Shown here piece by piece: positions 4,257 through 14,617 of a stretch of 14,824 nucleotides of DNA (position 1 is its first letter; every line of letters begins with the position of its first letter). This DNA is from Gammaproteobacteria bacterium (GTDB taxonomy: Bacteria > Pseudomonadota > Gammaproteobacteria > Pseudomonadales > Pseudohongiellaceae): the NCBI GenBank assembly GCA_016762995.1, contig JAESUT010000146.1, positions 7,005-21,828 on the forward strand. Direction: 5' to 3'. The translations under genes and the position numbers were made by a program. A model generated the notes under the pieces. The model searched no databases, was not told where the DNA came from, and saw only the letters and a list, made by a program, of their open reading frames with translations.

Positions 4257-5729
4257 ATGAAAATTTCTTTATCGCATTTAAGTAGCATGCGTAACTGGTT
4301 AGCGGCCCTGCTACTAACAACAGTGTCTTTTTCGGTGGCAACATTGAGCGCGCAATCAACGGACGACTGTGTTGACACCCTGCAATGTGAATCTTCCTGG
4401 ATTGGGTTGTCAGACAGCGAGCGCGAGACGGTATTTGCGTTTGCCGAAGACTACAAGGCGTTCATTCATAAGGCGCGTACGGAGCTCAGTTTCGTTGCAG
4501 AGGCAATCGCCTTCGCCGAGCAGAACGGCTTCGAAGAGTTGACAGCTTCTACCGCTATCGTTCCGGGTAAAAAGATCTATGAAGTCAATCGAGACCGCAC
4601 CATAAGTCTTTTGGTGATTGGCGAAGAAGCGATACAAGAGGGCTTCCATATCATCGGCTCGCACATTGATTCGCCGCGCCTAGAACTGAAGGGAAGGCCG
4701 CTATTTGAGGCCAGTGAGTTTGCCCTCTTTCAGACTAATTATCACGGCGGCATCAAGTTCCATCAATGGACCAACCTACCGCTAGCTCTGATGGGTCGCA
4801 TCGATAAGAAGGATGGAACCAGTGTTCATATATCAGTTGGGCTGGATGCTAACGACCCTATCTTTATGATTCCCGAGTTGTCCCCGCATGTTGACCGCGG
4901 CAGAAACTCACAGACTCTTGCTGATTTTATTACTCCCGAAGATCTCGATCCGATCATAGGGCATATCCCAGCTGAAGACGGCGGCGATCTAGTAGATCAG
5001 GTGCTAGCCTATCTAAGTGAGGAGTACGGCATTACTCGAGCCGATTTGGTCTCGGCCGAACTCTCCTTGGTGCCCGCTGGCGCACCACGGGACATGGGGT
5101 TCGATAGAGGGCTAATCGCCGCCTACGGTCAGGATGATCGACTTGCGTCCTATGCAGCGATGCGCGCTGTGGCGGAGATTGACCATCCCCAGAAGACTAC
5201 GATGGCCTTCTTGGTTGATAACGAGGAAGTAGGTAACAGGAACAATACGGGCGCACACTCCGATTACTTTGCCGACCTGCTTTCTAGACTCTTGTATGCG
5301 CAACTGGAAGAGGACTATCGCGAGCCTTTATTTCGTAGTGCGCTGCGTCAGACCAAATTTATATCCATAGACGTAAACCCAGGAATTAATCCAATCAACC
5401 CTGGAGTATGGGAGCCAGGCAATGCCCCCAAGCTAGGCTATGGCGTGAACCTCAAGCTCTATGGGCGGGGCAATACCGCCAACAGCGAGTTTATTGCGTG
5501 GACTCGGCAGCTGCTTGATAGCAATGCTGTGCCATGGCAGACGGTGACTTATAAAGTCGGTGTCGGAGGTGGTGGCACTATCGGTGGAGAGTTTTCTGCG
5601 CAAAATATCGAGGTAATCGATTTCGGTGTTCCACTGCTTTCGATACATACGCCCTACGCAGTTAGTTCTAAGATCGATGTATACAGCCTCTATCAGGCAG
5701 CCTTAGCGTTCTTTTCTTACACCGATTAG
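4257..5729 (+). CDS. M18-family metalloaminopeptidase with a signal peptide
   Basis: The product is a 490-residue zinc aminopeptidase of the M18 (aspartyl aminopeptidase-like) family. The metal and catalytic positions all appear present: His136 and Asp138 in SHIDSP, Asp293 in QDDRLAS, the Glu pair 323-324 in DNEEVGN, Asp372 in SIDVNP, and His464 in SIHTPY. The glycine-rich GVGGGGTIGGEF segment is also typical. The unusual feature is the N-terminus: residues 1-33 form a basic start, a hydrophobic stretch (WLAALLLTTVSFSVA) and a likely cleavage after LSA, so the enzyme should be exported, whereas well-studied M18 enzymes are cytoplasmic or vacuolar. The ATG at 4257 is supported by AGAGGA at 4245-4250 with six bases of spacing. 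Preferred substrate is unknown. It lies 51 bases before the cytochrome gene and could share its transcript. Confidence 0.9.
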   Translation: MKISLSHLSSMRNWLAALLLTTVSFSVATLSAQSTDDCVDTLQCESSWIGLSDSERETVFAFAEDYKAFIHKARTELSFVAEAIAFAEQNGFEELTASTAIVPGKKIYEVNRDRTISLLVIGEEAIQEGFHIIGSHIDSPRLELKGRPLFEASEFALFQTNYHGGIKFHQWTNLPLALMGRIDKKDGTSVHISVGLDANDPIFMIPELSPHVDRGRNSQTLADFITPEDLDPIIGHIPAEDGGDLVDQVLAYLSEEYGITRADLVSAELSLVPAGAPRDMGFDRGLIAAYGQDDRLASYAAMRAVAEIDHPQKTTMAFLVDNEEVGNRNNTGAHSDYFADLLSRLLYAQLEEDYREPLFRSALRQTKFISIDVNPGINPINPGVWEPGNAPKLGYGVNLKLYGRGNTANSEFIAWTRQLLDSNAVPWQTVTYKVGVGGGGTIGGEFSAQNIEVIDFGVPLLSIHTPYAVSSKIDVYSLYQAALAFFSYTD

Positions 5730-5780
5730 CGCGTTGCGGTTTATTCTCAGCACCCTAACTAAACTATTGATGAAGCTACT

Positions 5781-6581
5781 ATGAAAACACAAATTTCGAG
5801 GACTGCTCGTCTCTCTATTCTCCCCGCTTTAGCTTTCTCCGGTTTGCTCGCGGTATCTGCACAGCAGGCTCTGGCGCAAGAGGTTGGCGATCACCAGTAC
5901 ACAAGTGAGGCGGTTGAGACGGGTTCGCAGGTTTACACCCAACAGTGCGCGCTCTGCCACGGGCCACAAGGTGCTCTCGTGGACGGCATTAACCTCAGCA
6001 TCGGACAATTTCGCACCGTTCAATCGGACGCCGATCTAAGGCAGGTTATCAGTGAAGGCGCAGGACAAGGGCGTATGCCTGCCTTTAGTCTGCGCGCCGA
6101 GGAATTAAGAGGGGTAATTGCCTTTATTCGCGCCGGCTTCGACCCTGAGGGGGTGGCGGTAATAATCGGCGATCCGGTTCGTGGCAAAGAGTTGTTCGAA
6201 GGTGAGGGTCAGTGTGCAGACTGTCATCGAGTGAGAGGGGTAGGCCCGCGCACAGCTCCGGACTTGAGTAACATCGGCGCCATTCGTACGCCGGCATCCT
6301 TGCAGCGAAACATAACTGACCCGGCGACTGCACTGCTGCCGATCAACCGTCCAGTTCGGCTCGTCACTCGGTTTGAGGAGACTATCGTTGGCAGGCGCCT
6401 GAATGAGGATACCTATACTGTTCAGCTAATCGATTCAACGGAGCGACTCCGATCGCTAAAGAAAGTCGACTTAATCTCCTACGAGATCAGCGACGAGCCA
6501 AGTAAACAACCGACGACGATGTCCAGTGATGAAGTGGCAGATGTAATTGGCTACCTACTTACCCTGCGAGGTTTAGAATGA
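5781..6581 (+). CDS. Periplasmic diheme cytochrome c
   Basis: The product is a 266-residue exported electron carrier. Residues 1-33 are a signal peptide with likely cleavage after ALA. Two CxxCH heme-attachment motifs are visible: Cys56-Ala-Leu-Cys59-His60 and Cys145-Ala-Asp-Cys148-His149. The first domain has a plausible distal ligand, Met99, in GRMPAF. The second domain is longer, with GPRTAPDLSNIG, an ITDP segment, a beta-rich VGRRLNEDTYTVQLID stretch and a terminal DVIGYLLTL helix. That is the layout of the Pirellula/Verrucomicrobium-type heme-binding domain (as I recall, TIGR02603), often found beside PQQ enzymes in acidobacteria and planctomycetes. Its distal Met is unclear; the only late candidate is Met247. 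The stop overlaps the next ATG by four bases, so it is very probably the electron acceptor of the adjacent quinoprotein. Confidence 0.9.
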   Translation: MKTQISRTARLSILPALAFSGLLAVSAQQALAQEVGDHQYTSEAVETGSQVYTQQCALCHGPQGALVDGINLSIGQFRTVQSDADLRQVISEGAGQGRMPAFSLRAEELRGVIAFIRAGFDPEGVAVIIGDPVRGKELFEGEGQCADCHRVRGVGPRTAPDLSNIGAIRTPASLQRNITDPATALLPINRPVRLVTRFEETIVGRRLNEDTYTVQLIDSTERLRSLKKVDLISYEISDEPSKQPTTMSSDEVADVIGYLLTLRGLE

Positions 6582-8236
6582 GATTATCAAAACAAATTGG
6601 AACGATTGGCCTTGTATTTTTTCTCGGCCTGGCAGCATCAAATGTAGCCGCGCAAGTTCCCTATGAGCGAATTCTGAATTCGCAAGACGAGCCCGAAAAC
6701 TGGCTTACCTACAACGGCGGTTATAAGAGTCAGCGTTATAGTCAGCTAGATCAAATCACGCCGGAGAATGTAACCGACCTTAAATTGCAATGGACTTTGC
6801 AGAATCAGGTGTTCGGTGCCTGGCAATCGAATCCGATAGTGGTCGACGGCATCATGTATATCACCGAACGTCCGAACACCGTTATGGCGGTCGACGCGAT
6901 TACAGGAAGGTTTTTTTGGAAGTATCGGCACATTCCTGCAGAGAACGCCTTGATTTGTTGTGGGGCTAATAATCGGGGCGTGGCTGTGTTGGATGACAAG
7001 GTGTTCATGGGAACATTGGATGCGCGTCTCATCGCACTTGATCGAATTACTGGCAGCGCACTGTGGGACGTAGAAGTCGGTGATGTTGACCTTGCGTACT
7101 CGGTGACTATGGCGCCGCTAGTGGTAAAAGATCAAGTTATCGTTGGCGTAGGAGGGGGCGAGTTTGGCATTCGTGGATACGTTGCAGCCTACGACGCTGA
7201 AACCGGCGAAGAGGCTTGGAAGACTTACACGATCCCAGGCCCTGGTGAGCCGAATCATGACAGTTGGGAAGGAGACGACTGGGAGCATGGAGGTGCACCC
7301 GTGTGGATTACTGGTTCTTTCGATCCGGAACTGAATCTTACTTATTGGGGTGTCGGGAATCCCGGGCCAGATTGGAATGCGGGCCAGCGCCCCGGTGACA
7401 ATCTCTACTCTGACTCAGTGATCGCCTTGGACGCCGATACCGGCGAGCTGAAATGGTATTTCCAGTTCACGCCAAACGATGCCTATGACTATGACTCGGT
7501 GCAGGTGCCGGTGCTAGCCGACATTGTCTGGCGCGGGACGCCAAGAAAGATCATGATGTGGGCAAACCGCAACGGCTATTTCTATGTCATAGATAGAGTG
7601 ACGGGCGAGTTTCTTGAAGGTAAGCCCTATGTAAAGGTGAACTGGTCCAGCGGGCTCGATGAGAACGGGCGGCCAATTCCAACACCACAACCGGAGGGCA
7701 TGCCTACCTACCCTGGCAATCAGGGCGGCACCAATTGGTACCCGCCGTCCTTCAGCCCTAGAACAGGTCTCTTTTATTTTAGTGCGTGGCAGGACTATGC
7801 AACGATCTATCGTGCGGAAGAGTCTGACTATGAGCCCGGCAGAGCATTCCTCGGCGGTGGGTTTTCGGTATTAGCACCGGCACCGGGAGCACCAACTATC
7901 GGCATCGGCAGAACCAATCCTATTAACAACTGGACCAACGAAGTTGGCTTCGCCTCCTTGAAAGCGATGGATCCGCAGACTGGCGAAGAAGTCTGGTCCT
8001 ATGATCAGTTCGATGTGAGTGACAGCGGCATGCTAACGACTGCGTCAGATTTACTATTCACCGGCGGGCGCGAAGGCTATTTTCATGCGATCGATGCGCG
8101 TAACGGCGATTTGCTATGGAACGTCAACTTAGGCGGTCAGATCGTTATGGCGCCAGTGACTTTTAGCGTCGGCGGCGTTCAATACGTCTCGGTAATTTCC
8201 GGACATGCCTTGTCCACATTTGCATTGCCCCACTAG
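6578..8236 (+). CDS. PQQ-dependent alcohol dehydrogenase, periplasmic, with Asp-x-Asp active site
   Basis: The product is a 552-residue quinoprotein that should oxidise an alcohol in the periplasm and pass electrons to cytochrome c. A signal peptide ends after VAA near residue 25. Many propeller repeats of the AxDxxTGxxxW type are visible (AVDAITGRFFWKY, AYDAETGEEAWKT, ALDADTGELKWYF). The vicinal Cys127-Cys128 pair is the disulfide ring next to PQQ in this family. Predicted metal ligands are Glu195 (GGGEFGIRG) and Asn261 (GVGNPGP). The catalytic base is Asp304, followed at +2 by Asp306 in YDYDSV; an Asp there is characteristic of lanthanide enzymes such as XoxF, ExaF and PedH, where MxaF has Ala. 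There is no fused cytochrome domain, so it depends on an external acceptor, most simply the diheme cytochrome encoded just upstream. Substrate is unknown. Confidence 0.92.
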   Translation: MRLSKQIGTIGLVFFLGLAASNVAAQVPYERILNSQDEPENWLTYNGGYKSQRYSQLDQITPENVTDLKLQWTLQNQVFGAWQSNPIVVDGIMYITERPNTVMAVDAITGRFFWKYRHIPAENALICCGANNRGVAVLDDKVFMGTLDARLIALDRITGSALWDVEVGDVDLAYSVTMAPLVVKDQVIVGVGGGEFGIRGYVAAYDAETGEEAWKTYTIPGPGEPNHDSWEGDDWEHGGAPVWITGSFDPELNLTYWGVGNPGPDWNAGQRPGDNLYSDSVIALDADTGELKWYFQFTPNDAYDYDSVQVPVLADIVWRGTPRKIMMWANRNGYFYVIDRVTGEFLEGKPYVKVNWSSGLDENGRPIPTPQPEGMPTYPGNQGGTNWYPPSFSPRTGLFYFSAWQDYATIYRAEESDYEPGRAFLGGGFSVLAPAPGAPTIGIGRTNPINNWTNEVGFASLKAMDPQTGEEVWSYDQFDVSDSGMLTTASDLLFTGGREGYFHAIDARNGDLLWNVNLGGQIVMAPVTFSVGGVQYVSVISGHALSTFALPH

Positions 8237-8240
8237 GAAG
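8235..8240 (+). promoter_or_regulatory. Shine-Dalgarno site of the hydrolase gene, overlapping the preceding stop codon
   Basis: AGGAAG starts inside the TAG stop (8234-8236) of the quinoprotein gene and lies five bases before the ATG at 8246. It fixes the hydrolase start and indicates coupled translation in one mRNA. Confidence 0.7.
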
Positions 8241-8245
8241 CCCGC

Positions 8246-9175
8246 ATGAAATTAAAGGTCAGTTTCACCGTGAGTCTGATTTCTCAAACCGTAGTTTTCG
8301 CTGCTTTGTCGCTGCTGATGTTGCCAGCGCTGGCGCAGACTGCCGCAATTCAACACAATGTCGAGGCAGATGGTCACCCGATGGCGCTTTGGGAGAAATC
8401 CGTTGCACAGCCGAAGGGGCATATTCTTTTGCACCATGGTCGTACCTGGAGCTCTATTCCAGACTTCGACCTACAGGTATCGGGAGAAGACCTTTCTCTG
8501 ATGGATGGCTTTAATGACTTGGGCTATAGCGTCTGGGCACTTGATGCTAGGGGCTATGGTGAGACTCCCAGAGATAGCAGCGGCTGGAACACGCCGGATC
8601 GGGCCGCGCTAGATCTATCGATAGTCTTAGATTGGCTGCGCGCAAGAAACGGTGAAGCCACCCACGTCTGGGGATGGTCCTACGGTTCTATGGTTGCCCA
8701 GCTTGCCGCACAGCGGTATCCAGAGGCGATGCTGAGTGTCACTTTGTTCGGATATCCAATGGATCCCGATGCGGAAATTCCGCACAGCAATAGCCAGTCT
8801 GAGCCCTCGGCTCGCCCGACGACTAGAGCCGCTGCCGCATCGGATTTCATAGTTCCCGGATCAATTTCTCAGCATGCGATAGACACCTATGTAACTGCCG
8901 CTCTTAAGGCAGACCCTATTAGAGCGGACTGGAATCAACAGCATCAGTGGAATGCGCTAGACGGTGAGGCGCTTACCCTGCCGACGCTACTTTTGCAGGC
9001 AGAATTTGATCCATTGGCAAATACAGATGCACACGCACGGTTCTTCGCAAAGATTGCGAATCCGAATAAACAATGGGTGATATTGCCTGGTGGTGACCAT
9101 GCCGCACTCTTAGAAACACCACGAGCAAAGCTAATAAAATCTACAGTCGATTTCATCGAGTGGCTTGATTACTAA
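8246..9175 (+). CDS. Exported alpha/beta-fold hydrolase
   Basis: The product is a 309-residue serine hydrolase with a signal peptide (hydrophobic core from about residue 9, likely cleavage after ALA near residue 30), so it is predicted periplasmic or secreted. The nucleophile elbow is Gly143-Trp-Ser145-Tyr-Gly147. Asp255 in AEFDP and His285 in GGDHAAL complete a normal triad, and the HHG segment near residue 64 is a typical oxyanion-hole motif. The RGYGET segment resembles the monoacylglycerol-lipase/S33 peptidase branch, but the chemistry (esterase, lipase, peptidase) cannot be decided. The gene follows the quinoprotein by nine bases with its ribosome site in the upstream stop. This suggests it works with that enzyme, for example by freeing an alcohol from an ester; that role is inference. 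No terminator is visible in the 64 bases before the convergent permease gene. Confidence 0.85.
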   Translation: MKLKVSFTVSLISQTVVFAALSLLMLPALAQTAAIQHNVEADGHPMALWEKSVAQPKGHILLHHGRTWSSIPDFDLQVSGEDLSLMDGFNDLGYSVWALDARGYGETPRDSSGWNTPDRAALDLSIVLDWLRARNGEATHVWGWSYGSMVAQLAAQRYPEAMLSVTLFGYPMDPDAEIPHSNSQSEPSARPTTRAAAASDFIVPGSISQHAIDTYVTAALKADPIRADWNQQHQWNALDGEALTLPTLLLQAEFDPLANTDAHARFFAKIANPNKQWVILPGGDHAALLETPRAKLIKSTVDFIEWLDY

Positions 9176-9239
9176 GCCTGTTGCCCGGACGCATTTAACT
9201 GGATGCTTTCTTCACTTTCTTCCGCTGAACATCTGCCGA

Positions 9240-10955
9240 CTAATTATGTCGAATTCTATTACTGGTCCATAGAGCTAACACGGTGGCAAGCAGCGGCAGT
9301 AGTCCCTGCATGACCAAGTAGCTCAATTGCACTATCCAGATGTCTTGATTCAGCAAACCATAATTGTTCGTTCCAAAAAGCCACGCGAAATTCAATCCAG
9401 CAAACACGGCCCCAATTCCCGATAGGTAGATCATTTGTGTTTGTGTAAGCACGCGCTCGCGCAGTAGGTGCTTCATCATGACTATCAGAGAGGCTGGAAT
9501 TAACATGACTAGTATCCAAAGATGATTGGCGAATACCCTGTTGATAGCATGGTTATATGCAGCTGCCTCGCCATCACCGTAGATCGCCATAAGTAGGATA
9601 GACCAGAGGAAAATATAGACTGCAACAATCGCTGATACAATTGCTGTGGGTTTGTTATACAAAATAATCCAAGTGAAGAATGTCGCTAGCAGTAGCAAAG
9701 CTGTAAGAAAGGCGACAAGTAACATACCAACATTGAACAGTGTACCGAGGATACTTAGTCCATAAAAGATACTGATAGAGTCCAAGAAGTGATCTTGCAT
9801 AATTTGGAAATTACCGATCAGAAAGGGGCCTAGTATCCGAATGGCTATTAGCATTACCACGCCGGCGAGGAGCGTGCTGCTAAGAGAAACTCCAGTGCGA
9901 ATGAGTGTCAGCCAGGCTGTGCTAAGCGGAGTAGTCCTGTCGTGTAGGCTCACATTGGGTGCGCCATTCTTATAGCGTACTCCATACATGTAAATTGTTA
10001 AGCCAATACATATGAATCCGTAGAACATGACAGCGATAGCCCAACTGCTTTCATGTTGGGTGTTAGCTCCCCTGGGCAGGGTGAAATTGATAAAAGCCAA
10101 GATAGCTATCGTAACGGCCGCGCCTGTTAAGCCAGCGAACAATGCGTTAGCTCCGCCGTGGAGTTGACGTTCCTTCCAAAATTCAGCCGCTATTGAGGAG
10201 TGTGTCGGGCAGGTGGAAACGGGTAGGGGCAAACGTTCTCTTATAATGCCTTGCTCCGTAGTATTGAACACTCCTTTTCCAAATTCGATTAGACCCTCAC
10301 CGCTGCGCTGCTGCTTTACGCCAAAATAAGTAATTAGCAAAAGGGCTGCGGTGAAAATTAATGCGACAAAATAATCCGCGGGGTTTGCGGCAATGAAGAC
10401 CCAGGTACCTTCAATGCGGTTAAACTCCGGGATTAGCAGTCCGTTTAGGTAGAGAGTAAGTACTAGCAGCCAGCCTGCTATGCTAGCGACCCCGTTTTCT
10501 GTCCACCAACTCAACATCAAGGTCAGAATAGTGAATTGAAAAACTATAAAACTGATGGGAATGACGGATAGTTCGGTGTTGAAATAGAGAAGGTTAACGA
10601 TAAGTCCGGGGACGAAAATGGCTATCTGTGTAAGTGCGCAGAAGAACAAAAGGGGGGTCAGCAAAAGTGTGCGCGTCGACACAGGTAGCGAGAACTCTGC
10701 TCTATAAGGAAAGCCGACAGAGGAGCGGGTGCGCACAATGTTGTGGCTCTTGTGTAGCGCTAATGAATAGATGAGCGTTAAACCGACCAGAAGAGCAAAG
10801 TCAGCTGCTTTGAATAGAGCAAGTGTGTCCTCGCCTGGACCCAAGGCAAGATCAATTAGGAATATAACGCTAACCACGCCTGCAATCTGCGTAAGCAGTG
10901 CGGGCCAACTCAGGCTAAATGCGCTCCATGCGAGTGCTTGGCTGGGGCTTCTCAT
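9240..10955 (-). CDS. ABC transporter permease, large polytopic membrane protein
   Basis: The product is a 571-residue membrane protein with roughly 13-15 hydrophobic segments by eye, spaced over the whole length. A more polar stretch near residues 214-255 separates two membrane-rich halves. That organisation fits an ABC-2-like exporter permease with two fused halves or an enlarged membrane domain, as in transporters next to YtrA-type regulators. No ATPase motifs are present; the ATPase is the gene just upstream. The start codon overlaps the ATPase stop (ATGA, 4 bases), so the two products are almost certainly made together and form one transporter. I recognise no substrate-specific motif, so substrate and direction of transport are unknown. 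It converges with the hydrolase gene at its 3' end. Confidence 0.8.
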   Translation of the reverse strand: MRSPSQALAWSAFSLSWPALLTQIAGVVSVIFLIDLALGPGEDTLALFKAADFALLVGLTLIYSLALHKSHNIVRTRSSVGFPYRAEFSLPVSTRTLLLTPLLFFCALTQIAIFVPGLIVNLLYFNTELSVIPISFIVFQFTILTLMLSWWTENGVASIAGWLLVLTLYLNGLLIPEFNRIEGTWVFIAANPADYFVALIFTAALLLITYFGVKQQRSGEGLIEFGKGVFNTTEQGIIRERLPLPVSTCPTHSSIAAEFWKERQLHGGANALFAGLTGAAVTIAILAFINFTLPRGANTQHESSWAIAVMFYGFICIGLTIYMYGVRYKNGAPNVSLHDRTTPLSTAWLTLIRTGVSLSSTLLAGVVMLIAIRILGPFLIGNFQIMQDHFLDSISIFYGLSILGTLFNVGMLLVAFLTALLLLATFFTWIILYNKPTAIVSAIVAVYIFLWSILLMAIYGDGEAAAYNHAINRVFANHLWILVMLIPASLIVMMKHLLRERVLTQTQMIYLSGIGAVFAGLNFAWLFGTNNYGLLNQDIWIVQLSYLVMQGLLPLLATVLALWTSNRIRHN

Positions 10956-11875
10956 TTTGTATTTTCCTTAAGCTGACTCAGTTCGCCAATGTCTGGGCGA
11001 CCCACTCTCGAGACGAAAATTTCCTCCAAAGTTGCATGGCGTGATTTGAGAATTTCACCGCCTATTTTTTTAACAGAATTTTGAAAAGCATCCATAGAGC
11101 CTTGATGAACAACGCTAAAGAATCTCCCCTCACCTGAAATTTTCGCCACACCTTCTAGTGATGGCGGTGAGCTTTGCAGGTCTGCAAAGCGAATCGAGGA
11201 GCAATGGTGATTGCTGTTTATAATCTCTAAAGAACTATCTAGGGTTATTTTCCCCTGATGGATCATTGTTACATGGTCAGAAAGCCTTTCTACTTCCTCT
11301 AATAGATGGGAGGAAAAAATTACAGTTCGTCCTTCTTCGGAGATGGTGCGTACTACAGCATTGAGGATATCTTTTCTAACAACAGCGTCCAATCCGCTGG
11401 AGGGTTCATCGAGGATCAGTAAGTCGGGCCGGTGCGCAACTGCGCTTATAAGTGCAACTTGTGCCCGCATACCTCGAGAAAGTGTCTTAATTTTTTTTTC
11501 TGGATCCAAAGAAAACGTATCTAGTAGCTCGGTGGCATAGCCTTGATCCCATGCAGAATGGAAAGCGCCGGTATAACGCATTAACTCATCAATTGACATC
11601 CAATCTGGAATGTCGCGGTCTTCGGATAGATAGCCTATTCGCTTTAATACTCCCTCCGGGTTACGTACAGGGTCTTCGCCAAAGATTTTCACGGTTCCAG
11701 ATTTCGCACGTAACAGCCCTAACAAGTGTTTGATAAGAGTGGTCTTGCCCGCGCCGTTGGCACCCACTAGTCCATAGACCTTGCCTCTGCTTGCCGTAAA
11801 GTCCACGGAGTCTAAGGCGTTGGTCTTGCCAAAACTACGTGACAAATTATTAACTTCGACTACAAATTCAGTCAT
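10952..11875 (-). CDS. ABC transporter ATP-binding protein (YtrB/BcrA-like)
   Basis: The product is a 307-residue cytoplasmic ATPase that would power the permease encoded next. Walker A is GANGAGKT at residues 38-45, the ABC signature is LSRGM at 132-136, Walker B is LLILDEP at 152-158 with the D-loop SGLD, and the switch histidine is His189 in SSH. At the Q-loop position the sequence reads YLSED, so Glu85 seems to stand where Gln is usual. A longer open frame begins at 11920, but its extra 15 residues are basic and lie inside the regulator gene. The ATG at 11875 gives the normal N-terminus (MTEFVVEVNNLSRSF) and has a strong ribosome site just before it. It overlaps the regulator stop by eight bases and the permease start by four. 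Confidence 0.93.
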   Translation of the reverse strand: MTEFVVEVNNLSRSFGKTNALDSVDFTASRGKVYGLVGANGAGKTTLIKHLLGLLRAKSGTVKIFGEDPVRNPEGVLKRIGYLSEDRDIPDWMSIDELMRYTGAFHSAWDQGYATELLDTFSLDPEKKIKTLSRGMRAQVALISAVAHRPDLLILDEPSSGLDAVVRKDILNAVVRTISEEGRTVIFSSHLLEEVERLSDHVTMIHQGKITLDSSLEIINSNHHCSSIRFADLQSSPPSLEGVAKISGEGRFFSVVHQGSMDAFQNSVKKIGGEILKSRHATLEEIFVSRVGRPDIGELSQLKENTK

Positions 11876-12290
11876 TAATCTTCTCCGATTCGGTGTTCTG
11901 CCCCTGTTTTTTTTCCTCAAGCTGTGCCTGTCTCTCTCTTATTAATTCGAGCAGGTCTTGAGCATTGAAATCTAGTTGATGCGCCTCCGCCAATAGAGCG
12001 TCGATCCTGGCGTCGATGATGCGCCTGCGCTCACGGTCCGCAAGAGGCGATTGCTCGTCGGAAATATAAGTGCCTGCGCCGCGGCGCTTGAATATCACGC
12101 CAGCTGCTTCCAGCTCATCGTAGGCTTTAACCACCGTATTTGGCGTTACATTCAATGCCAGTGCCAGTGTGCGAACGGGAGAGATTTCCTCGCCTGGCTC
12201 AAGCAGGTTTGACGCCACCATGTAGCGAATTTGATTCGCTATCTGTCGGTAGATGGGGACGCCATCTTTGCTGTTGATTGTTATATTCAT
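11868..12290 (-). CDS. GntR-family transcriptional regulator, YtrA type
   Basis: The product is a 140-residue DNA-binding regulator. Residues 12-75 are a classic GntR winged helix: PIYRQIANQIRYMV, then PVRTLALALNVTPNTVVKAYDELEAAG, then the wing KRRGAGTYIS. The remaining 65 residues are short, charged and helical, too small for the effector domains of FadR or HutC types, which points to the YtrA subfamily. YtrA-type proteins usually sit first in an operon with ABC transporter genes and repress it until an inducer, often a cell-envelope-active compound, is sensed. That is the arrangement here: regulator, ATPase and permease overlap and share a promoter. A dyad in the promoter is a candidate binding site. 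The effector is unknown. Confidence 0.9.
   Translation of the reverse strand: MNITINSKDGVPIYRQIANQIRYMVASNLLEPGEEISPVRTLALALNVTPNTVVKAYDELEAAGVIFKRRGAGTYISDEQSPLADRERRRIIDARIDALLAEAHQLDFNAQDLLELIRERQAQLEEKKQGQNTESEKIND
11879..11886 (-). promoter_or_regulatory. Shine-Dalgarno site deciding the ABC ATPase start
   Basis: On the minus strand GGAGAAGA lies just before the ATG at 11875, inside the 3' end of the regulator gene. It favours the shorter start over the upstream ATG at 11920. Confidence 0.75.
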
Positions 12291-12559: not shown

Positions 12560-14617
12560 ATGCAAGCTCCAACTCCAAGGAGATCAAGTCTTAACTGGCG
12601 CGCGTCCACTGCTGCGGGTCTGTTGCTGTGTTCTTCAGGTTTTTTGAACGCTCAGGATATTCCGTTGTTCAATGAGGACCCGGGCGATTGGTACACATTG
12701 GGTGGCGACTACGCTCACACGCGTTATACACCTGCCGATGAGATCACAGCCGATAATTTCACTGACTTGGAAGTGGTTTGGGAATGGGATGGTGCTAGTT
12801 TCGGCGCCATTAGCGGCCGTTCCACGCCTTCGTTGATCAATGGCAAACTAATTACAGTAGCGGGCAATAAGCGCTATGTTGTTGCATTGGATCCTAAAAC
12901 TGGTGAAACAATCTGGTCTTACCGTGAGCCGGATACGGCCCGCGCTGAGTATTCCATGCGCGGCGACTACGGCAAGGGTGTGGGCTATGCCAACATCGAT
13001 GGAAGAGAAGTAGTCTATATAGTCTCTCCTGGATTCTTCCTAACGGCACTGGATGCCAACACGGGCATTCCTCTAGAAAATTGGGGTAGGCCGGTGCCAA
13101 TCGACGGATTTCCTCAGTCGGGCATCGTCGACCTCCTAGCCGACTTAGGTCATCCTTATGACCCTTACGAAGGTATTCCATTAGAGACAGGCTATATCAC
13201 GTCCTCTTCACCGCCGATCGTGGTTAATGGCACTGTCATTGTTGGTAACTCGGCCGAGCAGGGCTATCACCAGGCACGTATTGAAAACGTACCGGGCGAT
13301 ATCCTAGCCTACGATGCACGCACTGGCGCCTTCAAATGGAAGTTTAACGTCATTCCTAAGCCGGGCGAGTACGGTCACGAAACGTGGGAAAACGATGCTT
13401 GGGCGTGGACTGGCGATGTCTCTTCTTGGGCTCCGCTTTCGGCCGACCCAGTTAACAATCTGGTGTATATCCCAACGAATAGCGCGACTATAGATTACTA
13501 CGGTGGCTTCCGCCCGGGCGACAATCTGTACGGTGCCGCCTTGATAGCGTTAGATGTGCGAACTGGCGAGCGTGCCTGGCATTTCCAGATGGTTAAACAT
13601 GAAATCTGGAACTTCGACAACCCAACGGCACCGGTTCTTCTCGATCTGAACGTGCCAGGGCAGGGCCGTGTGCCAGCTATCATGCAGGCGACAAAGCAGG
13701 CGTGGGTCTATGCCTTCAATCGCATAACCGGTGAGCCAATTTGGCCAATCGTGGATCGCCCAGTGCCTCCATCGATCGTACCAGGCGAAGTGCTTTCGCC
13801 TACTCAGCCCCATGTGACACGTCCAGCACCATTCGACATGCAGGGAATTACCGAAGACGATCTGGTCGACTTCACTCCAGCACTGCGTGCGGAGGCCTTG
13901 GCGGCGCTGGACGACTATGTGATGGGGCCTTTGTTTAACCCACCCATTCATGCCGATAATCCCATGGGGAAATACGCAGCGATGAACTGTCCTGGCGGCG
14001 CTGGCGGTGCAAATATCACCGCACCGGCTGTGGCAGATCCTGAGACAGGCAAGATGTACATCTCGTCGCACAAGGCTTGTTTTGCCCTACGACTGATACC
14101 GGGTGAAGAGTCCGATTTGTTGTTCCCGAACTCCACCGGCATTAACACGGCGCGTTATGCAAATGGCGCTCGCGGTGCTACAGCGAGACCTCCACGGCTA
14201 AGCTCAGGCATTCCAATATGGAAGCCACCGTATAGCCGAATTACCGCTATCGATATGAACACCGGTGATCACGCATGGATGATTCCAACCGGTGAAACTC
14301 CCGACCGTATCGCTAACCATCCAGCGCTTGCAGGCGTGGATATAGGCAATACTGGAACGGGCGCGTTGGTACCTATGGTCGTAACCAAGAATATGTTGGT
14401 TTATTCAGATCAAGCTGGCGACGGTACGCCGATGCTCTATGCCATCGATAAGGATAACGGTGACATCATGGCTCAGCTAGAGGCACCAAGCCGCAGCAGC
14501 TATGGTATGAGCTCGTGGGTACACGAAGGCCATCAGTATATCTTGCTGCAAACTAGCTCTTCACTGACTGCGCTGGCTCTGCCAGGTGCGCAGGAAGAAG
14601 CTGGCGACGCTCACTAA
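12560..14617 (+). CDS. PQQ-dependent dehydrogenase, membrane-GDH-like soluble type, periplasmic
   Basis: The product is a 685-residue exported quinoprotein with a signal peptide ending near LNA (residues 29-31). Propeller repeats are clear (ALDPKTGETIWSY, AYDARTGAFKWKF, ALDVRTGERAWHF, AIDMNTGDHAWMI). The segment GEPIWPIVDRPVP, with VLSPTQP and RPAPFD after it, marks the branch related to the periplasmic domain of glucose dehydrogenase, often annotated as quinoprotein glucose dehydrogenase or generic PQQ dehydrogenase. Glu233 and Asn307 are plausible metal ligands. At the active-site motif the sequence reads HEIWNFDNP: Asn351 stands where the catalytic Asp of WDxD is expected, and Asp353 is kept. 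Vicinal cysteines, a heme motif and the transmembrane anchor of true membrane GDH are absent. It is a single-gene unit divergent from the GntR operon; the ribosome site is a weak AGAGAGA. Substrate unknown. Confidence 0.85.
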   Translation: MQAPTPRRSSLNWRASTAAGLLLCSSGFLNAQDIPLFNEDPGDWYTLGGDYAHTRYTPADEITADNFTDLEVVWEWDGASFGAISGRSTPSLINGKLITVAGNKRYVVALDPKTGETIWSYREPDTARAEYSMRGDYGKGVGYANIDGREVVYIVSPGFFLTALDANTGIPLENWGRPVPIDGFPQSGIVDLLADLGHPYDPYEGIPLETGYITSSSPPIVVNGTVIVGNSAEQGYHQARIENVPGDILAYDARTGAFKWKFNVIPKPGEYGHETWENDAWAWTGDVSSWAPLSADPVNNLVYIPTNSATIDYYGGFRPGDNLYGAALIALDVRTGERAWHFQMVKHEIWNFDNPTAPVLLDLNVPGQGRVPAIMQATKQAWVYAFNRITGEPIWPIVDRPVPPSIVPGEVLSPTQPHVTRPAPFDMQGITEDDLVDFTPALRAEALAALDDYVMGPLFNPPIHADNPMGKYAAMNCPGGAGGANITAPAVADPETGKMYISSHKACFALRLIPGEESDLLFPNSTGINTARYANGARGATARPPRLSSGIPIWKPPYSRITAIDMNTGDHAWMIPTGETPDRIANHPALAGVDIGNTGTGALVPMVVTKNMLVYSDQAGDGTPMLYAIDKDNGDIMAQLEAPSRSSYGMSSWVHEGHQYILLQTSSSLTALALPGAQEEAGDAH

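What the first reader, a model, noticed from the sequence alone, without database searches (positions are those of the whole stretch)
5781..9175. Compact exported module: diheme cytochrome c, PQQ dehydrogenase and alpha/beta hydrolase
Three adjacent genes with a 4-bp overlap and a 9-bp gap all carry signal peptides. Together they could make a self-contained periplasmic pathway: an ester or amide is cleaved by the hydrolase, the alcohol is oxidised by the quinoprotein, and electrons leave through the cytochrome. I do not know a characterised system with this exact trio. It lacks the usual MxaG/XoxG and XoxJ partners. The tight spacing and shared location are seen directly; the pathway is inference.
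Basis: partly seen in the sequence, partly recalled or inferred. Interest (0 to 1): 0.7.

Follow-up and report, generated by a model that had tools for sequence, protein, structure and literature searches.

The report
Marine ester-hydrolase and alcohol-oxidase gene cluster
A cytochrome and an alcohol-oxidising enzyme form a fixed gene pair in a group of little-studied aquatic bacteria, often beside a relative of the plastic-degrading enzyme PETase, and the hydrolase noticed here is a later add-on seen in one branch of that group.

Summary
The three genes are real: diheme cytochrome c (CYT), lanthanide-type PQQ alcohol dehydrogenase (ADH) and alpha/beta hydrolase (HYD). CYT-ADH is a fixed pair: spacing -4 to +2 bp in 46 of 47 readable loci, +25 in one. 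HYD is not core. It lies directly behind ADH in 10 of 69 ADH copies, in one clade; a nested relative keeps only its two ends. The better-conserved hydrolase is a PETase-like gene, within 15 kb of ADH in 44 of 69 copies, always on the opposite strand where both share a contig. Its model matches Ideonella PETase, but it has Tyr at the tryptophan site and an invariant Cys-Cys. In three genomes a tannase-family gene, best PDB match MHETase, follows ADH. Best reading: an exported ester-hydrolysis cluster feeding a quinoprotein; HYD is the window clade's variable second hydrolase. Against it: only 17 of 48 loci have a hydrolase or thioesterase directly behind ADH. Substrates are unknown. The window genome shows no PqqE, PqqC or PqqU, so its PQQ supply is unexplained. 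A recalled parallel exists: polyvinyl-alcohol degradation.

The parts
5781..6581 (+). CYT: exported diheme cytochrome c, 266 aa; probable electron acceptor of ADH
   Evidence: both CXXCH motifs invariant in 47 of 47 aligned rows (46 loci, window twice)
5946..5960 (+). first heme site CALCH (residues 56-60); Met99 invariant, likely axial ligand
   Evidence: ligand role inferred
6213..6227 (+). second heme site CADCH (residues 145-149); no invariant Met in this half
6578..8236 (+). ADH: exported PQQ-dependent alcohol dehydrogenase, methanol/ethanol family, 552 aa
   Evidence: TIGR03075 557.6 bits, cut-off 480.05; best PDB match 6zcv E 1.8e-104
6956..6961 (+). vicinal cysteines C127-C128 of ADH
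   Evidence: 49 of 49 rows (48 loci, window twice)
7487..7495 (+). D304-Y305-D306: catalytic Asp and the extra Asp linked to lanthanide binding
   Evidence: D306 in 48 of 49 rows, the other unreadable; role from passages of PMC5487730
8246..9175 (+). HYD: exported alpha/beta hydrolase, 309 aa; clade-specific second hydrolase
   Evidence: S145, D255, H285 invariant in 21 of 21 rows (20 loci, window twice)
8672..8689 (+). nucleophile elbow GWSYGS of HYD (Ser145)
12560..14617 (+). PQQ2: second exported quinoprotein, 685 aa, linked to ADH in most of the genus hits
   Evidence: PF01011 500.6 bits; same strand and within 15 kb of ADH in 44 of 69 copies (lower bound)
9240..12290 (-). permease, ABC ATPase and GntR regulator: a variable insert between HYD and PQQ2, not considered part of the cluster
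   Evidence: present in some sisters, absent in G008, G013, G143, G154; its permease has the highest dN/dS

Best explanation
The window holds one clade's version of an exported ester-utilisation cluster. Core (shown): CYT and ADH, translated from touching genes. Frequent partners (shown): a PETase-like serine hydrolase on the opposite strand, and a second quinoprotein, PQQ2. The place behind ADH is variable (shown): HYD in the window clade, a tannase/MHETase-like esterase in three other genomes, a 4HBT_2 thioesterase-fold protein in a third group, other genes elsewhere. Mechanism (inferred): exported hydrolases cut esters or polyesters and release alcohols; ADH with PQQ and a lanthanide oxidises the alcohol; CYT takes the electrons towards the respiratory chain. 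The alcohol, the ester and the electron transfer have not been tested.
For: CYT-ADH spacing -4 to +2 bp in 46 of 47 loci, +25 in one. ADH active site invariant. PETase-like gene within 15 kb of ADH in 44 of 69 copies, within 3 kb in 32, on the opposite strand in 46 of 46 same-contig cases; 45 of 63 named loci show ADH within the 10-kb flank. PF12740 159.6 and 179.3 bits, cut-off 28; best PDB matches are polyester/PET hydrolases, E 5.6e-43 and 7.3e-44; AlphaFold model pLDDT 92, best Foldseek match Ideonella PETase, E 8.0e-29, TM 0.85 by target, 32% identity. Ser172, Asp225, His257 in 58 of 58. Promoter-like blocks conserved in the PETase-CYT gap of 20 loci (seen by eye). Tannase-family gene behind ADH in G121 and G140, and one gene further in G024: PF07519 374.8 bits for the G121 copy, best PDB match MHETase E 1.9e-65 against 7.2e-53 for a feruloyl esterase. 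HYD, CYT, ADH and PQQ2 under purifying selection.
Against: PETase-like gene not in the hit list for 15 of 69 ADH copies and on another contig in 8; in genus g28 it is not seen near ADH. Not found in the window genome itself: its contig ends about 200 bp after PQQ2, and the sister G129 contig ends 1 bp after PQQ2. Directly behind ADH, 31 of 48 loci have something other than HYD, MHETase-like or 4HBT. PETase-like protein has Tyr for the PETase Trp and lacks other conserved Cys; MHETase-like protein has Ala where MHETase is recalled to have Arg411 (alignment). No aldehyde dehydrogenase was identified among the neighbours annotated. No PQQ synthesis found in the window genome.
Confidence: 0.45

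Rival explanations
1. Ordinary module plus passenger: CYT-ADH is one of several copies of a general alcohol-oxidation pair in this genome, and HYD is an unrelated gene that happened to land behind it and is kept for another job.
For: Five CYT-ADH pairs in the window genome (C183, C226, C166, C185, C170). HYD adjacency fits a single gain on the ADH tree. HYD stands apart from ADH in other genomes. It is reduced to two ends in G154 and missing in G143.
Against: HYD is kept with 9-bp spacing in 8 of 10 loci and under purifying selection. Other ester-hydrolase families occur at or near the same place in other genomes.
Confidence: 0.33
2. Oxidise first, hydrolyse second, as in polyvinyl-alcohol degradation: ADH oxidises a polymer or diol and HYD cuts the oxidised product.
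For: Same three protein types as PVA dehydrogenase, cytochrome c and oxidised-PVA hydrolase (passages of PMC9602593).
Against: No oxidised-PVA hydrolase among the 60 best of 81 PDB matches to HYD, down to E 0.25 (that such structures exist is recalled). ADH belongs to the methanol/ethanol family. Linkage to PETase-like genes points to ester cleavage first.
Confidence: 0.08
3. The ADH is idle or only occasionally active in this genome because PQQ is neither made nor imported.
For: No PqqE (best 57.7 bits, cut-off 381.35), no PqqC, no PqqU at E<=1e-60, only partial TonB matches of at most 38.7 bits in G000.
Against: ADH active-site residues are invariant in genomes with and without PQQ synthesis, and dN/dS stays low. 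G000 is 92% complete in 234 contigs, and its sister G129 has PqqE and PqqC, so the genes may simply be missing from this assembly. PqqU is reported to diverge widely (passages of PMC12124388).
Confidence: 0.1

Closest known systems
ped/exa system of Pseudomonas (PedE/PedH or ExaA with cytochrome c550 PedF/ExaB)
   Same: Exported PQQ ethanol-type dehydrogenase with vicinal Cys pair; adjacent cytochrome gene; PedH has the same extra Asp (passages of PMC5487730 and PMC12997753).
   Different: CYT is diheme and fails the PedF model (26.4 bits, cut-off 122). No hydrolase of the esterase kind was mentioned for ped in the passages seen (the terms esterase and polyester have 0 occurrences; hydrolase 2, one a SoxH-like metallo-hydrolase).
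Polyvinyl-alcohol degradation (PVADH, cytochrome c, oxidised-PVA hydrolase)
   Same: PQQ dehydrogenase, cytochrome c and alpha/beta hydrolase used together (passages of PMC9602593; operon arrangement in other species is recalled).
   Different: Order of steps is oxidation then hydrolysis; no oxidised-PVA hydrolase among the matches shown for HYD.
Ideonella sakaiensis PETase and MHETase
   Same: Nearest solved structures of the PETase-like and tannase-like partners.
   Different: About 32% identity; Tyr at the Trp site, invariant Cys-Cys and no other conserved Cys; Ala at the recalled Arg411 position. PET activity is not implied.
XoxF/MxaF methanol dehydrogenase systems
   Same: Same quinoprotein superfamily; Asp of the lanthanide kind.
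   Different: CYT fails the MoxG model (20.1 bits, cut-off 147.8); no XoxJ-like gene was identified in the window annotation.

Membership tests
PQQ alcohol dehydrogenase, methanol/ethanol family (TIGR03075) | score over the curated cut-off | tested here: met
   557.6 bits against 480.05
PQQ alcohol dehydrogenase, methanol/ethanol family (TIGR03075) | vicinal Cys, Glu, Asn and catalytic Asp of the active site | tested here: met
   C127-C128, E195, N261, D304 invariant in 49 of 49 rows
lanthanide-dependent alcohol dehydrogenase | extra Asp two residues after the catalytic Asp | tested here: met
   D306 in 48 of 49 rows, one unreadable; aligned with Asp of 6zcv, recalled to be PedH
lanthanide-dependent alcohol dehydrogenase | activity with lanthanide rather than calcium | not testable with these tools
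   needs purified enzyme
acido-empty-quinoprotein group A (TIGR04528) | score over the curated cut-off | tested here: not met
   506 bits against 650
ped/exa system | cytochrome c550 PedF/ExaB (TIGR04494) | tested here: not met
   26.4 bits against 122
XoxF/MxaF methanol oxidation | cytochrome cL (TIGR03872) | tested here: not met
   20.1 bits against 147.8
polyvinyl-alcohol degradation | hydrolase related to oxidised-PVA hydrolase | tested here: inconclusive
   none among the 60 rows shown of 81 PDB matches
PET hydrolase family (linked gene, not in the window) | PF12740 and Ser-Asp-His triad | tested here: met
   159.6 and 179.3 bits, cut-off 28; triad 58 of 58
PET hydrolase family (linked gene, not in the window) | active-site Trp (IsPETase Trp185) and disulfide cysteines | tested here: not met
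   Tyr in 58 of 58; the only conserved Cys are the vicinal pair; residue name recalled
PET hydrolase family (linked gene, not in the window) | BHET hydrolase equivalog NF051441 | tested here: not met
   135.8 and 157 bits, cut-off 520
MHETase (gene behind ADH in three other genomes) | tannase family PF07519 | tested here: met
   374.8 bits for the G121 copy; G140 and G024 copies 80% and 67% identical to it
MHETase (gene behind ADH in three other genomes) | Arg411 binding the substrate carboxylate | tested here: not met
   Ala in the alignment by my own count; position recalled

The most novel reading that the evidence does not exclude
OM182/Pseudohongiella bacteria carry a dedicated natural (poly)ester-degradation cluster: a new PETase-like subfamily with a vicinal cysteine pair at the substrate site, a clade-specific second hydrolase (HYD, or an MHETase-like esterase), and a lanthanide quinoprotein with its own diheme cytochrome that burns the released alcohol, in cells that mostly lack recognisable PQQ synthesis and so depend on neighbours for the cofactor.
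Probability: 0.25. Interest if true: 0.75.

Novelty: new variant of a known kind. Interest (0 to 1): 0.52.

Why it matters
If true, it links three topics in one uncultured lineage: natural relatives of plastic-degrading enzymes, lanthanide-dependent alcohol oxidation, and PQQ as a shared vitamin. It also gives a ready set of proteins to express and test. Passages of PMC8371827 describe these sister families as little studied, with gene annotations that are hard to interpret.

Tried and rejected
HYD as the conserved partner: rejected. Ped/exa and methanol-oxidation membership: rejected for CYT by model scores. The tandem TonB receptors beside ADH in some genomes as PqqU: one receptor (L107) gave no PDB match at E<=0.01, and two of three gave only weak general NCBIfam matches, the third none; not settled. 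RNA families and tRNAs in the window: none. Promoter-like sites in 5600-9400: fewer than in shuffles (2 against a mean of 3.6), so no use was made of them; the blocks are from alignment by eye and are not tested statistically. HYD structure (A2): never run, the machine was busy at each try. A second structural aligner was not available. Paper searches that found nothing: polyester hydrolase + PQQ-dependent alcohol dehydrogenase + marine + gene cluster, quinoprotein + PETase + TonB + Gammaproteobacteria, OM182 + PQQ; they cover only the open library held. PETase + Pseudohongiella gave two papers, seen as listings only. Of the papers cited, passages were seen of PMC5487730, PMC8371827, PMC12997753, PMC9602593 and PMC12124388, and of the last also one whole section; the rest were listings with the start of the abstract.

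Rows dropped: one search used the 69 ADH rows with at least 64% identity (weaker paralogs left out; one search's list was itself cut), the PETase rows with at least 49% identity, one row per genome for HYD, and the stronger PQQ2 rows; the PQQ2 count is a lower bound (the broken G013 copy was not in the typed list). A3 holds 58 of 63 PETase-like loci; five were left out for N or stops. In one search the window is counted twice (as window and as L081).
Full report
One search gives three + strand ORFs at 5781-6581, 6578-8236 and 8246-9175, with a 4-bp overlap and a 9-bp gap. CYT has two CXXCH hemes and cytochrome c domains. ADH passes TIGR03075 (557.6 bits, cut-off 480.05). HYD is an alpha/beta hydrolase. 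Signal sequences were judged by eye. dN/dS against five sister loci is 0.03-0.10 for all three. The trio ends a run of same-strand genes with short gaps, so 'self-contained' is not shown.

Where it lies. The window is the right-hand 14.8 kb of contig C183 of a 3.05-Mb, 234-contig genome; the window ends where the contig ends. A scan with the linked PETase-like protein found 65 named loci: 63 in Gammaproteobacteria/Pseudomonadales records, several named OM182 or Pseudohongiella, and two distant ones (Actinokineospora, 32%; a Halomonadaceae MAG, 30%). The genus is therefore in the OM182/Pseudohongiella group; most titles do not give a habitat, and one is from Lake Baikal. The window's own record is not among the named ones.

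The fixed pair. Among 69 ADH copies with at least 64% identity in 137 family genomes, neighbourhoods were read for 48 loci. In the 47 loci where both ends could be read, CYT and ADH are spaced by -4 (28 loci), -1 (14), +2 (4) or +25 bp (1). ADH active-site residues C127-C128, E195, N261, D304 are invariant in 49 rows (48 loci, window twice), and D306, the aspartate tied to lanthanide binding (passages of PMC5487730), is present in 48 of 49, the other being unreadable. The window genome has five such CYT-ADH pairs, so the pair as such is an ordinary building block here.

HYD is variable. It was found in 29 of 137 family genomes: 15 in the window's genus, 10 and 4 in two others. It lies directly behind ADH in 10 of 69 copies (G000, G013, G112, G008, G129, G034, G028, G145, G132, G153), 9 bp behind in eight of them, 34 and 371 bp in two. 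The reading frame is broken in G013 and interrupted in G153. In G007 it lies behind PQQ2. In six it is on another contig (in G150 contig ends prevent a judgement), in one it is 666 kb away, and in 51 it is not in the hit list. In eight loci of other genera (L121-L128) it stands without an ADH ortholog nearby. On an ADH tree of 48 loci plus the window the ten form one clade together with G154. G154 keeps the first 139 and the last 90 bp of HYD next to each other, and G143 has none. So HYD was probably gained once behind ADH and lost at least once, and is dispensable in some relatives.

The hydrolase that is linked more often. A PETase-like gene lies on the same contig as ADH in 46 of 69 copies, always on the opposite strand, within 15 kb in 44 and within 3 kb in 32; it is on another contig in 8 and not in the hit list in 15. 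In the named set 45 of 63 loci show ADH inside the flank of up to 10 kb; 16 show neither ADH nor CYT, some because the flank or contig ends. In the most common arrangement it is divergent from CYT across 98-347 bp, and blocks that look like promoter elements are conserved there in the 20 loci aligned (by eye). In the window clade it has moved downstream of PQQ2: seen in 8 of the 10 HYD-bearing relatives, not in G000 or G129, whose contigs end just after PQQ2. It is therefore expected, but not shown, in the window's own genome.

What the PETase-like protein is. PF12740 at 159.6 and 179.3 bits, cut-off 28. Best PDB sequence matches are polyester or PET hydrolases. The AlphaFold model has pLDDT 92.0, pTM 0.85; the 50 Foldseek rows shown are PETases and close variants, best 9m8i_B, E 8.0e-29, TM 0.85 by target, 32% identity. 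The triad is invariant in 58 of 58. The position of the PETase tryptophan is Tyr in 58 of 58, followed by an invariant Cys-Cys; no other cysteine is conserved. It fails the BHET-hydrolase equivalog (136 and 157 bits, cut-off 520). So: same fold and chemistry, its own subfamily, substrate unknown.

The gene behind ADH. In 48 loci it is HYD (10), NHL (9), PQQ2 (6), a 4HBT_2 thioesterase-fold protein (5) or something else (18). Among these last, G121 and G140 have a tannase-family protein 35 and 81 bp behind ADH, and G024 has one a gene further on. The G121 copy scores 374.8 bits for PF07519; its best PDB match is MHETase (E 1.9e-65), ahead of feruloyl esterases (best 7.2e-53); the other two are 80% and 67% identical. 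No NCBIfam model matches. By my count on the alignment the recalled Arg411 is Ala, so MHET is not a predicted substrate. A hydrolase or thioesterase directly behind ADH is thus seen in 17 of 48 loci; 31 of 48 do not have one, which limits the argument. This recount was made after most of the analysis; I hold the main confidence at 0.45 because of it.

Second quinoprotein. PQQ2 (12560-14617) is on the same strand as ADH and within 15 kb in 44 of 69 copies, a lower bound. It has no gene-specific model above cut-off, and its role is unknown.

Cofactor supply. The window genome shows no PqqE (best 57.7 bits, cut-off 381.35), no PqqC and no PqqU. By my count of the rows, 66 of 84 genomes of the genus have neither PqqE (E<=1e-40) nor PqqC (E<=1e-20), and 41 of the 48 shown as at least 90% complete, among them three single-contig genomes (G024, G156, G157). 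PqqU at E<=1e-60 is in 7 of 137 family genomes, three of them in the genus. The ADH is intact in both groups. Against a strong conclusion: G129, the nearest sister, has both genes; many genomes are incomplete; PqqU homologs diverge (passages of PMC12124388). That many bacteria with quinoproteins do not make PQQ and import it is already published (same paper, abstract and section 11).

Judgement. Shown: the pair, its conservation, its intact active site, the repeated linkage to a PETase-like gene and the single-clade history of HYD. Inferred: electron flow from ADH to CYT, the order hydrolysis then oxidation, and any role of HYD in it. Known kind: quinoprotein alcohol oxidation with a dedicated cytochrome. 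New in this variant: the recurrent company of PETase-like and, in three genomes, MHETase-like hydrolases. Known parallel for the trio: polyvinyl-alcohol degradation, with the steps in the other order (passages of PMC9602593).

Noticed in passing
G000 and family genomes: 66 of 84 genus genomes have neither PqqE nor PqqC at the thresholds used, and PqqU is seen in three of the genus, although ADH active sites are intact; how PQQ is obtained is open.
   Followed up: partly
L101:1916-2887, L107:11663-12580 and 56 further loci: PETase-like subfamily with an invariant vicinal Cys-Cys beside Tyr at the PETase tryptophan site and no other conserved cysteine.
   Followed up: partly
L148:9496-11028, L157:5604-7106, L114:6492-7988: Tannase-family protein nearest to MHETase in the PDB, behind the same ADH in three genomes.
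   Followed up: partly
L088:113-1855 (G000 contig C156): The window genome has a tannase-family gene (PF07519 332.3 bits) about 4.7 kb from a gene with 31% identity to ADH.
   Followed up: no
window 9240-12290: Permease, ABC ATPase and GntR regulator inserted between HYD and PQQ2 in some relatives; in G119 a related set lies between the PETase-like gene and CYT. The permease evolves faster than its neighbours.
   Followed up: partly
window 5730-5780: The gap before CYT keeps a TTTATTCTCA stretch like the block before CYT in genomes where the PETase-like gene is divergent, as if M18 had been placed at the old promoter.
   Followed up: no
L119 (G013), L133 (G153), L174: Several genes of the cluster have broken reading frames in these assemblies; sequencing error or decay cannot be told apart.
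   Followed up: no
L114, L107, L111, L145 and others: One to three TonB-dependent receptors and an NHL-repeat protein lie behind ADH in part of the genus; their substrate is unknown.
   Followed up: partly
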